64,000 nucleotides of DNA from Pseudomonadota bacterium. GTDB taxonomy: Bacteria; Pseudomonadota; Gammaproteobacteria; Burkholderiales; Rhodocyclaceae. This document shows positions 37,907 through 39,576 of this stretch, piece by piece. The notes under the pieces are model-generated. The model did not search any database. It saw only the letters and a list, made by a program, of their open reading frames with translations, and was not told where the DNA came from. Where the stretch lies: assembly GCA_018241725.1 (NCBI GenBank), contig JAFEDI010000144.1:1-64000 (forward strand). Direction: 5' to 3'. A program made the translations under genes and the position numbers. Positions within the stretch are counted from its first letter, which is position 1. Each line of letters begins with the position of its first letter.

Positions 37907-38182
37907 TCAACCCAGCTCCGGCGGCACCCATTCCATTTCATGGGGGAACAGACCGACGCTGCTCACCGCCGTCGTCTCCACGCAGTTCCACCACATGGTC
38001 ACCCAGGCGCGGCCCTCCTCGTCGATCTTCTCCACCTCAGAGATGGCCCCGACCATAAACATGATCATGTCCAGTTCGTCCTCGTCCATGTCCGGGTCTG
38101 GCGAAACGGACAAGATCCGCACATGTTCGCCCACGGTGACCGCCCGGCCGTTCCTGTCCTTCACGCTAACTCTTGCATCCAT
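37907..38182 (-). CDS. Unknown 91-aa acidic protein, probable NifA regulon member
   Basis: The product looks beta-rich and small, starting MDARVSVKDRNGRAVTVGEHVRILSV, with an acidic stretch SPDPDMDEDELDM (residues 27-39) and a Trp-rich end (WVTMWWN, EWVPPELG). It has no Cys motif or export signal. The beginning is reminiscent of small beta-barrel proteins such as NifZ, but I do not claim homology. The ATG at 38182 follows GGGAGA. A sigma-54-type promoter lies 63 bases upstream on its strand, with two NifA-type sites beyond, shared with divergent nafY. Confidence 0.7.
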   Translation of the reverse strand: MDARVSVKDRNGRAVTVGEHVRILSVSPDPDMDEDELDMIMFMVGAISEVEKIDEEGRAWVTMWWNCVETTAVSSVGLFPHEMEWVPPELG

Positions 38183-38244
38183 GTGGGTCTCCCGCTGTCG
38201 CATTGTCGAAGACCGCCGCAATCCGGCGGTGTCGAACAAGGCAT

Positions 38245-38260
38245 AGCAAGCTTCGAACCA
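38245..38260 (-). promoter_or_regulatory. Sigma-54 promoter of the 91-aa gene
   Basis: The minus strand reads TGGTTC-N5-TTGCT. The essential GG (-24) and GC (-12) are present with correct spacing; CA is replaced by TT in the first box. The ATG of the 91-aa gene lies 62 bases downstream. Confidence 0.6.
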
Positions 38261-38323
38261 CGCCTTCCCAGGCCCCGATAGCGCCTCCGGTACGGCATTC
38301 CGGCCCCGCTGGCGCCCCCGGCT

Positions 38324-38339
38324 TGTCGGGAAGGCGACA
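38324..38339. promoter_or_regulatory. NifA upstream activator site 1
   Basis: TGT-CGGGAAGGCG-ACA matches the NifA consensus TGT-N10-ACA exactly. It lies 63 bases from the leftward and 145 bases from the rightward sigma-54 promoter. Confidence 0.7.
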
Positions 38340-38377
38340 TCCAACCGCCGCTTTCCCGCCACGCCGGATGCGGGCTT

Positions 38378-38393
38378 TGTCGTTGAAACGACA
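38378..38393. promoter_or_regulatory. NifA upstream activator site 2
   Basis: TGT-CGTTGAAACG-ACA is a second exact NifA-type site and is itself an extended palindrome (TGTCGTT...AACGACA). It lies about 91 bases upstream of the rightward -24 element and about 117 bases from the leftward one, normal distances for NifA sites. Confidence 0.75.
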
Positions 38394-38484
38394 CATCGCC
38401 AGCCACCGGACGGGCTCCGGCATCCGCCAACTTCCGCTTTGCCGACAAGCACTTGAACGACATGCCTGACGCCCCCCCGGAAGC

Positions 38485-38500
38485 TGGCACTGTATCTGCT
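38485..38500 (+). promoter_or_regulatory. Sigma-54 promoter of nafY
   Basis: TGGCAC-TGTAT-CTGCT matches TGGCAC-N5-TTGCW closely, with GG and GC correctly placed, 40 bases before the nafY ATG at 38540. It also argues against the earlier in-frame ATG at 38453, which lies upstream of the promoter. Confidence 0.75.
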
Positions 38501-38539
38501 GATAGCCGGAGAAACATCACAAGCGAGCGGAGTCCCCCA

Positions 38540-39286
38540 ATGGAAAAACCCGAAAAGATCACCCGCGAGGCTGCCCTCCGGGTGGCCCTTGCCGCGCGGG
38601 CCATGCCCAACATCGGCCTGACCCGCCTCATCGAAGTGCTGCAGGAATGCCTCGGCGACAGCATCGACATCGAGACCCTGCGCAACATCACCGTCACCCA
38701 TCTGAAAACCGGCTTCGGCAGCCTCGACGGCGAAGAGGACGGCGAGGACATCGGCATCGGCCTGGAAGCCATGAAGTTGGCCGTGCGCATCCTGTGGGGC
38801 GACGCCGACGACGATGAAGGCCTGCCGCCGCTCGAGCCCTACAACGAAGGCGACATGCCGGACTCGGTACGCGTCGCCATCGCCTCCGACTTCGGCCTGG
38901 CGCTCAACGGCCACTTCGGCTCCTGCCTGCGCTTCCTGGTCTACCAGGTGTCGCCCACCGAGAGCCGCCTGATCGACGTCCGCCACACCGCCGAGGCGGA
39001 TTTCGCTCCGGACAAGAACCTGTTCCGCGCTCAGCTCATCGGCGACTGCCACGTGGTGTATGTGGTGTCCGTCGGCGGCCCGGCGGCGGCCAAGATCATC
39101 CGTGCCGACATCTACCCAATCAAGCTGGCGGAAGGCGGCACAGCGGACGAGGTGATCGCCAAGTTCCAGCACGCCATGGAGAACTCGCCACCGCCCTGGC
39201 TACTGAAGATCCTCGGCGTCGCTGCGGAAAACCGGCTGCGTAACTACGGCGCAAACCGGGCGGCCGACGACGTTCACGCGGACTGA
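38540..39286 (+). CDS. nafY: NafY, nitrogenase accessory factor (NifX-like)
   Basis: A 248-residue protein. Residues 1-100 resemble the NafY N-terminal helical domain (TREAALRVALAARAMPNIGLTRLIEVLQ), which contacts apo-dinitrogenase; residues about 113-225 are the NifX/NifB-C-terminal-type FeMo-co-binding domain (VRVAIASDFGLALNGHFGSCLRFLVYQV with its His). NafY carries FeMo-co to apo-NifDK. No nif structural gene is in the window, so this is a detached nif-regulon locus. Start chosen for GGAG upstream and for the promoter at 38485-38500. Confidence 0.88.
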   Translation: MEKPEKITREAALRVALAARAMPNIGLTRLIEVLQECLGDSIDIETLRNITVTHLKTGFGSLDGEEDGEDIGIGLEAMKLAVRILWGDADDDEGLPPLEPYNEGDMPDSVRVAIASDFGLALNGHFGSCLRFLVYQVSPTESRLIDVRHTAEADFAPDKNLFRAQLIGDCHVVYVVSVGGPAAAKIIRADIYPIKLAEGGTADEVIAKFQHAMENSPPPWLLKILGVAAENRLRNYGANRAADDVHAD

Positions 39287-39309: not shown

Positions 39310-39576
39310 ATGACCAAGCCGAAACCCGATCACTTCGAGGCCACCGCCGCGCTGATCAGCAACGCGATCGGCACGGCCCGCGTCTTTGGCGAGAACCCGC
39401 GCATCACGCGGCTGGTGGCCAGCAGCATCGGCCGCTTCGCCGCCGAGCTGGACAACACGCCGGATGCCATCGCCGCAGGCCCCCAGCTGATCCGCTACGC
39501 CCTTGCCCAGATCAGCGAGCAGGACGCGCTGTTCGTGCCCAAGCTGCAAGCGTCGCTGGAAGAGCTGGCGCGCTAG
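39310..39576 (+). CDS. Unknown 88-aa protein downstream of nafY
   Basis: A helical, Ala-rich small protein (HFEATAALISNAIGTARVFGENPRI...). No domain recognised. It starts 23 bases after nafY with a GAAGGA ribosome site and precedes a strong terminator, so it ends the nafY transcript and should share its nitrogen-fixation control. Confidence 0.65.
   Translation: MTKPKPDHFEATAALISNAIGTARVFGENPRITRLVASSIGRFAAELDNTPDAIAAGPQLIRYALAQISEQDALFVPKLQASLEELAR

What the first reader, a model, noticed from the sequence alone, without database searches (positions are those of the whole stretch)
38245..38500. Divergent nif-type control region: two NifA sites between two sigma-54 promoters
Two exact TGT-N10-ACA sites (38324-38339, 38378-38393) lie between a leftward TGGTTC-N5-TTGCT and a rightward TGGCAC-N5-CTGCT element, all at distances usual for NifA-driven genes. 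All four signals in about 260 bases are unlikely by chance and place both flanking genes in the nitrogen-fixation regulon although no nif structural gene is near.
Basis: partly seen in the sequence, partly recalled or inferred. Interest (0 to 1): 0.72.

Follow-up and report, generated by a model that had tools for sequence, protein, structure and literature searches.

The report
Shared NifA switch for two genes
A short stretch of DNA in a nitrogen-fixing Zoogloea-like bacterium carries the standard nitrogen-fixation switch facing both ways, toward a known cofactor-carrier gene (nafY) and toward a small unnamed gene that keeps company with it; the switch is of a well-known kind, while the small gene has no described function.

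Summary
Confirmed: both exact TGT-N10-ACA sites and both sigma-54-like elements lie where stated. The rightward gene (38540-39286) is itself a nif gene, NafY-type, which corrects "no nif structural gene is near". The genome holds NifA, NifL, RpoN, NifD and a vanadium nitrogenase. Strict site-plus-promoter arrangements occur 6 times in 5.9 Mb against 0 for the reversed pattern; the nearest downstream genes called are all of nif or nif-associated type, and this nafY is one. The nafY half recurs in 42 of 47 close relatives but in 0 of 33 distant ones. The leftward half is weaker: TGGTTC-N5-TTGCT alone is no better than chance, but it is conserved in four closely related sequences and orthologs of the left gene have sigma-54 promoters at the same place. 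The left gene encodes an unnamed, probably SH3-like protein, present in all 11 sampled genomes that have this nafY. Verdict: a real, ordinary divergent NifA/sigma-54 control region. Newer: the unnamed gene, and a NifA-like palindrome fixed about 41 bp downstream of its promoter in 27 of 28 relatives' leaders.

The parts
37907..38182 (-). Left gene (here 'P1'), 91 aa, no Pfam or NCBIfam family; predicted small beta-barrel of SH3/KOW type
   Evidence: Translation; no family; model mean pLDDT 88.8; homologs
38196..38211 (-). Degenerate remnant (CTTCGACAATGCGACA) resembling the palindrome found in the leaders of P1 homologs; 13 of 16 letters as in CGTCGACTTTGCGACA
   Evidence: Sequence; compared by eye with leaders
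38212..38230 (-). Perfect inverted repeat ACCGCCG-5-CGGCGGT in the P1 leader, invariant in four closely related sequences
   Evidence: 38209-38238 invariant; fold of the relatives' leaders
38245..38260 (-). Leftward sigma-54-like element TGGTTCGAAGCTTGCT, 78 bp upstream of P1
   Evidence: 15 of 16 columns invariant; position equivalents in homologs
38324..38339 (.). NifA-type site 1, TGTCGGGAAGGCGACA; 79 bp from the left element, 161 bp from the right one
   Evidence: 16 of 16 columns invariant; distances
38378..38393 (.). NifA-type site 2, TGTCGTTGAAACGACA; 107 bp from the right element, 133 bp from the left one
   Evidence: 15 of 16 columns invariant; one of 6 genome-wide composites
38428..38458 (.). 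31-bp fully invariant block between site 2 and the right promoter, with an IHF-like match GTTCAAGTGCTTG on the - strand (38458-38446, 2 mismatches; 0.5 such matches expected in this region)
   Evidence: weak on its own
38485..38500 (+). Rightward sigma-54 element TGGCACTGTATCTGCT, 55 bp upstream of nafY
   Evidence: 16 of 16 columns invariant; a sigma-54 match in 47 of 47 close relatives
38540..39286 (+). nafY (NafY-1 type), 248 aa: DIMCO_N and Nitro_FeMo-Co domains, His-Phe-Gly motif present
39310..39576 (+). Small gene 'P2', 88 aa, no known family, follows nafY on the same strand; found near nafY in 19 of 80 named loci

Best explanation
The 357-bp gap between 38182 and 38540 is a divergent nitrogen-fixation control region. 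Under nitrogen-fixing conditions NifA most likely binds the two palindromes and activates RNA polymerase with sigma-54 waiting at both promoters. Rightward this makes a second NafY (FeMo-cofactor carrier, separate from the NafY encoded beside nifHDK) and probably P2; leftward it makes P1, a small SH3-like protein of unknown function tied to this NafY. Site 2 is the main site for nafY (107 bp) and site 1 the main site for P1 (79 bp); whether each site also serves the other promoter is inference. Shown here: the sequence elements, their rarity, their conservation, the presence of NifA, NifL, RpoN and nitrogenase genes, and the identity of NafY. Inferred: actual NifA binding, promoter activity, IHF bending, P1's function.
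For: All signals present. Whole arrangement 0 of 300 in simulation. Genome-wide, TGT-N10-ACA followed at 75-105 bp by TGGCAC-N6-TGC gives 6 places, reversed control 0; the nearest called genes downstream are NifE, NifH (5' part at a contig end), NifQ, an A-type Fe-S assembly protein, RnfH (with NifL and NifA behind it) and this NafY. NifA 675 bits, above its cut-off; NifL 626 bits; one RpoN 478 bits; nifD and vnfD above their cut-offs. UAS-to-promoter pair upstream of nafY in 42 of 47 loci of at least 66% identity, shuffles expect 0.0; spacing 89-93 bp in 14 and 100-103 bp in 18 of the 42, one helical turn apart. Four related sequences: 62 of 64 motif columns invariant against 231 of 293 others, Fisher p 2.3e-4. 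P1 homologs: TGGCA[CT]-N5-TTGC at 78-95 bp upstream in 28 leaders; in three homologs not beside nafY a NifA-like palindrome lies 78-89 bp upstream of CGGCAC-N5-TTGC. All 11 of 150 family genomes with this NafY have P1; within genomes with a nifD-family match 11 have both, 6 P1 only, 48 neither, 0 this NafY only.
Against: The left -24 element departs from consensus at two positions. Random placement of four 16-mers in the same alignment reaches the same invariance in 1557 of 100000 trials, and the P1 leader itself is nearly invariant (57 of 62), so the footprint of the left half is only moderate. 5 of 47 close relatives (L055, L074, L077, L079, L080) have a sigma-54 match but no exact TGT-N10-ACA, and none of 33 methanotroph-type relatives under 66% identity has the pair. 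Several unlinked P1 homologs (L137, L141, L143, L144) show no NifA-like site. P1-nifD co-occurrence is 17 of 18 with any nifD-family match but 14 of 18 with matches above the nifD cut-off (44 of the other 132 genomes; p 4.8e-4), and the genomes are not independent. No expression data.
Confidence: 0.82

Rival explanations
1. Only the right half is real: NifA and sigma-54 drive nafY from both sites, and P1 is transcribed from another, non-sigma-54 promoter.
For: The left element is as expected by chance in number; two tandem sites before one promoter are also seen at nifE in this genome and before nafY in L042 and L044; several P1 homologs show neither element.
Against: 28 P1 leaders in relatives have a sigma-54 element at the same place; the left element is conserved in 15 of 16 columns; site 1 lies 79 bp from it, like the 78-89 bp in L138, L140 and L146.
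Confidence: 0.22
2. The palindromes bind another sigma-54 activator, such as the VnfA-like protein at C30:22333-23604 or a hydrogenase regulator linked to hupSL in the window.
For: The genome has about 28 NifA-like activator hits including a VnfA-like one beside the V-nitrogenase genes; hupSL lies about 3 kb to the left.
Against: The same composite precedes NifH, NifE and NifQ in this genome. That VnfA and hydrogenase regulators use other sites is recalled, not tested here.
Confidence: 0.1
3. Chance arrangement.
For: Individual elements are common.
Against: 0 of 300 simulations, 6 against 0 genome-wide, 42 of 47 relatives.
Confidence: 0.02

Closest known systems
NifA/sigma-54 nif promoters with upstream activator sites (TGT-N10-ACA and TGGCACG-N4-TTGC), as in Azoarcus sp. 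BH72
   Same: Same site, same promoter type, similar spacing; the BH72 study predicts 29 NifA sites before 25 genes, tandem sites before rnfA1, nifL, sodC and nifE, and names nifY2 among genes raised under N2 fixation (PMC3916325, passages seen)
   Different: That BH72 nifY2 is the ortholog of this nafY is my guess, not tested; two genes share one region here
NafY-1 region of Dechloromonas aromatica RCB
   Same: Table 4 lists flavodoxin FldA, a hypothetical protein of 86 aa, NafY-1 of 247 aa, then NifB, with NafY-2 beside NifHDKT (PMC2907700, passages seen): the same pair of genes, most likely
   Different: There the genes lie within the nif cluster; here they lie apart from it and divergently. 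Identity of the 86-aa protein with P1 rests on position and size, not on a sequence comparison
Azotobacter vinelandii NafY
   Same: Two-domain FeMo-co carrier with an His-Phe-Gly motif (PMC8496260, passages seen); both Pfam domains found here
   Different: Not compared by sequence here; this genome has two further NafY-like genes

Membership tests
NifA/sigma-54 controlled promoter | Exact TGT-N10-ACA upstream site(s) | tested here: met
   Two sites
NifA/sigma-54 controlled promoter | Rightward -24/-12 element at a usual distance | tested here: met
   TGGCAC-N5-CTGCT, one mismatch, 107 bp from site 2; one of 6 genome-wide
NifA/sigma-54 controlled promoter | Leftward -24/-12 element | tested here: inconclusive
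   TGGTTC-N5-TTGCT, two mismatches, chance level alone; conserved and positionally matched in homologs
NifA/sigma-54 controlled promoter | Genome encodes NifA and RpoN | tested here: met
NifA/sigma-54 controlled promoter | Conservation in relatives | tested here: met
   Right half 42 of 47 loci of at least 66% identity; 0 of 33 below that
NifA/sigma-54 controlled promoter | NifA-dependent transcription | not testable with these tools
   No expression data held
NafY | N-terminal DIMCO_N domain and C-terminal Nitro_FeMo-Co domain | tested here: met
   111 and 66 bits, both above cut-off
NafY | His-Phe-Gly cofactor-binding motif | tested here: met
   NGHFGSC in the translation; motif described in PMC8496260
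NifX (TIGR02663) | Score above the equivalog cut-off | tested here: not met
   93.6 bits against 112
SH3/KOW-type proteins (for P1) | Significant family or fold match | tested here: inconclusive
   No Pfam family for P1; KOW and SH3 models only at E of 0.01-0.04 in a few of 41 homologs; best PDB fold match E 9.2e-3, none at 0.001 or better

The most novel reading that the evidence does not exclude
P1 is a previously undescribed partner of the NafY-1 type cofactor carrier, and its promoter is controlled by a NifA-type site that has changed place during evolution: upstream in the window's clade and in L138/L140/L146, but about 41 bp downstream of the -24 element, inside the transcribed leader, in the Azonexus/Dechloromonas-type loci. 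If NifA binds there it would activate or limit sigma-54 polymerase from a close, rigidly spaced downstream position; alternatively the element acts as an RNA hairpin.
Probability: 0.3. Interest if true: 0.6.

Novelty: new member of a known kind. Interest (0 to 1): 0.42.

Why it matters
It places a second NafY and a small uncharacterised protein family in the nitrogen-fixation regulon of Rhodocyclaceae. P1 and this NafY occur together in 11 of 11 sampled genomes with this NafY, even where the two genes lie far apart, which makes P1 a concrete candidate for a missing accessory factor in cofactor delivery. The rigid downstream palindrome in P1 leaders offers a simple test of how close and on which side a NifA-type site can sit.

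Tried and rejected
Considered P1 as a known nif accessory protein: no Pfam or NCBIfam family for the window's P1, only scattered weak Pfam matches (best E 0.012) among 41 homologs, no solved relative by sequence (best E 0.82), and only weak fold matches, mainly to eukaryotic ribosomal proteins and DSIF/Spt5 KOW domains. A second structural look was not available.

Considered the leader palindrome of P1 homologs as an RNA hairpin only. Native left and right flanks pair better than swapped ones (26 of 20000 permutations as good for 24 distinct leaders; 88 of 20000 for 16 clusters), but 6 to 8 of the 24 leaders pair no better than swaps, the distance is fixed to the promoter rather than to the start codon, and the same 16-mer TGTCGACTTTGCGACA is an ordinary upstream site 98 bp from a sigma-54 element in two other genomes (L207, L208; at L207 it faces an A-type Fe-S gene) while 5 other genome-wide matches had no such context and one was a P1 leader. 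So a DNA site is favoured, the hairpin is not excluded.

Considered the TGT-N10-ACA count in the window as evidence: rejected, it is at chance level. Of 26 exact TGGCAC-N5-TTGCW sites in the genome only 3 have an exact TGT-N10-ACA within 300 bp upstream, so most sigma-54 promoters here are not NifA targets.

Searched papers for a description of this region or of P1 (open-licence PubMed Central only); in the listings and the passages I opened I saw no description of P1's function. This is not proof of absence.

Full report
What is there. The gap 38183-38539 holds, left to right, a leftward TGGTTC-N5-TTGCT, two exact TGT-N10-ACA palindromes and a rightward TGGCAC-N5-CTGCT, exactly as reported. 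The two palindromes are 54 bp apart; site 2 starts 107 bp before the right element and site 1 lies 79 bp from the left one.

Chance. Single elements are at chance level: 4 palindromes against 5.7 expected, 30 sigma-54-like matches with up to two mismatches against 35.5 expected. The arrangement is not: a close pair of palindromes appeared in 8 of 300 simulated windows and the full divergent layout in none. In the whole 5.93-Mb genome the strict pair TGT-N10-ACA, 75-105 bp, TGGCAC-N6-TGC occurs 6 times, the reversed pattern never. The nearest genes I called downstream of the six are NifE (above its cut-off), NifH (its 5' part, cut by a contig end), NifQ (Pfam), an A-type Fe-S assembly protein, an RnfH-family gene about 180 bp on, with NifL and NifA behind it, and the nafY of this window. 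So this nafY promoter is among the six best-formed NifA-type promoters of the genome by that criterion.

The genes. The right gene is NafY: both NafY domains are above their cut-offs and the His-Phe-Gly motif is present (described for NafY in PMC8496260, passages). It scores below the NifX cut-off. The genome has two more full or near-full NafY-like genes, one behind nifHDK and nifT on contig C92 (50% identity) and one between a nifH-type and the vnfD gene on C30 (40%). The left gene, P1, has no family. Its model has a mean confidence of 88.8 and is a small beta-barrel with only weak matches to KOW/SH3-like domains. P2, behind nafY, has no family either.

The organism. The closest named relative of this nafY locus is Zoogloea sp. 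LCSB751 (98% protein identity); two metagenome-assembled genomes are at 98-99%. NifA, NifL, RpoN, nifD, vnfD and vnfG all exceed their cut-offs. nifH is split over contig ends.

Conservation, right half. Of 80 named loci, 47 have NafY of at least 66% identity: 42 of these have a TGT-N10-ACA 60-200 bp before a sigma-54 element upstream of nafY, and all 47 have a sigma-54 match; shuffled upstreams give none. Nearest-site spacing is 89-93 bp in 14, 100-103 bp in 18, 107 bp in 3, 111-114 bp in 4 and 67, 158 and 169 bp in the rest, that is, mostly in steps of about one helical turn. The five misses have no exact site. The other 33 loci, mostly methanotrophs of 59-63% identity, have no such pair.

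Conservation, left half. In four closely related sequences (88-96% identical over the gap) 62 of 64 motif columns are invariant against 231 of 293 others (p 2.3e-4), or against 142 of 192 columns between the promoters (p 2.1e-5); random placement of four 16-mers does as well in 1557 of 100000 trials. P1 homologs occur in 36 of the 80 named loci: 3 divergent from nafY, 27 downstream on the opposite strand, 6 downstream on the same strand. In L138, L140 and L146, where P1 is not beside nafY, a palindrome lies 78-89 bp upstream of CGGCAC-N5-TTGC, close to the 79 bp of the window. Other unlinked homologs show no such signals.

Co-occurrence. In 150 genomes of the family P1 is found in 18, a nifD-family match in 65 (58 above cut-off) and this NafY type (68% identity or more) in 11. 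All 11 have P1; in several they are far apart, for example 227 kb in G115 and on different contigs in G130. P1 goes with a nifD-family match in 17 of 18 (p 2e-6) or with one above the cut-off in 14 of 18 (p 4.8e-4); two of the exceptions are fragments and one, G090, is a weak P1 match. In 399 genomes of the order a P1 profile matched 15. Genomes share ancestry, so these p values are guides only.

A side result. In the 28 leaders above, GTCG-N6-CGAC is found 41-42 bp after the first base of the -24 element in all 28, and the fuller [TC]GT-N10-ACA at 40-41 bp in 27, against 0.57 expected and at most 3 in 500 shuffles. It thus lies in the transcribed leader. The window keeps only a degenerate version (38196-38211), while its clade has the upstream sites. 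The same 16-mer is an ordinary upstream site in two other genomes, which favours a NifA-type DNA site; compensating flanks in some leaders leave an RNA hairpin possible.

Literature. Azoarcus BH72 has the same promoter logic and a nifY2 raised under N2 fixation (PMC3916325, passages). Dechloromonas aromatica has FldA, an 86-aa hypothetical protein and NafY-1 in a row (PMC2907700, passages). Both fit, but orthology to the genes here was not tested by sequence.

Verdict. A real divergent NifA/sigma-54 control region, strong to the right, probable to the left: a new member of a known kind. NifA binding and transcription remain to be shown.

Noticed in passing
L045-L082, L139, L147 (leaders of P1 homologs): A NifA-like palindrome lies 40-41 bp downstream of the -24 element in 27 of 28 leaders, with partly compensating flanks. 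Downstream NifA site or RNA hairpin is unresolved.
   Followed up: partly
L135, L136, L142, L145: P1 homologs of other genera carry exact TGTCG-N6-CGACA 35-51 bp before the start codon; in L136 and L145 it is about 100 bp downstream of a sigma-54-like element.
   Followed up: no
L138, L140, L146: P1 lies beside a gene that looks like nikR (name from recall of the sequence, not from a family search); the window's P1 lies about 3 kb from hupSL. A nickel or hydrogenase link is possible.
   Followed up: no
window 39310-39576: P2, an 88-aa protein of no known family, follows nafY; homologs in 19 of 80 named loci, 9 of them with P1 as well.
   Followed up: no
G000 contigs C30, C34, C64, C92: Two nifH-type genes are each split over contig ends; the genome has Mo and V nitrogenase gene sets and three NafY-like genes.
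   Followed up: partly
G000:C64:60802-62000: A second pair of outward-facing NifA-type promoters, toward NifQ and NifH, though about 900 bp apart and with a called gene between them.
   Followed up: no
window 38212-38230: Perfect 7-bp inverted repeat in the P1 leader, invariant in the four related sequences.
   Followed up: no
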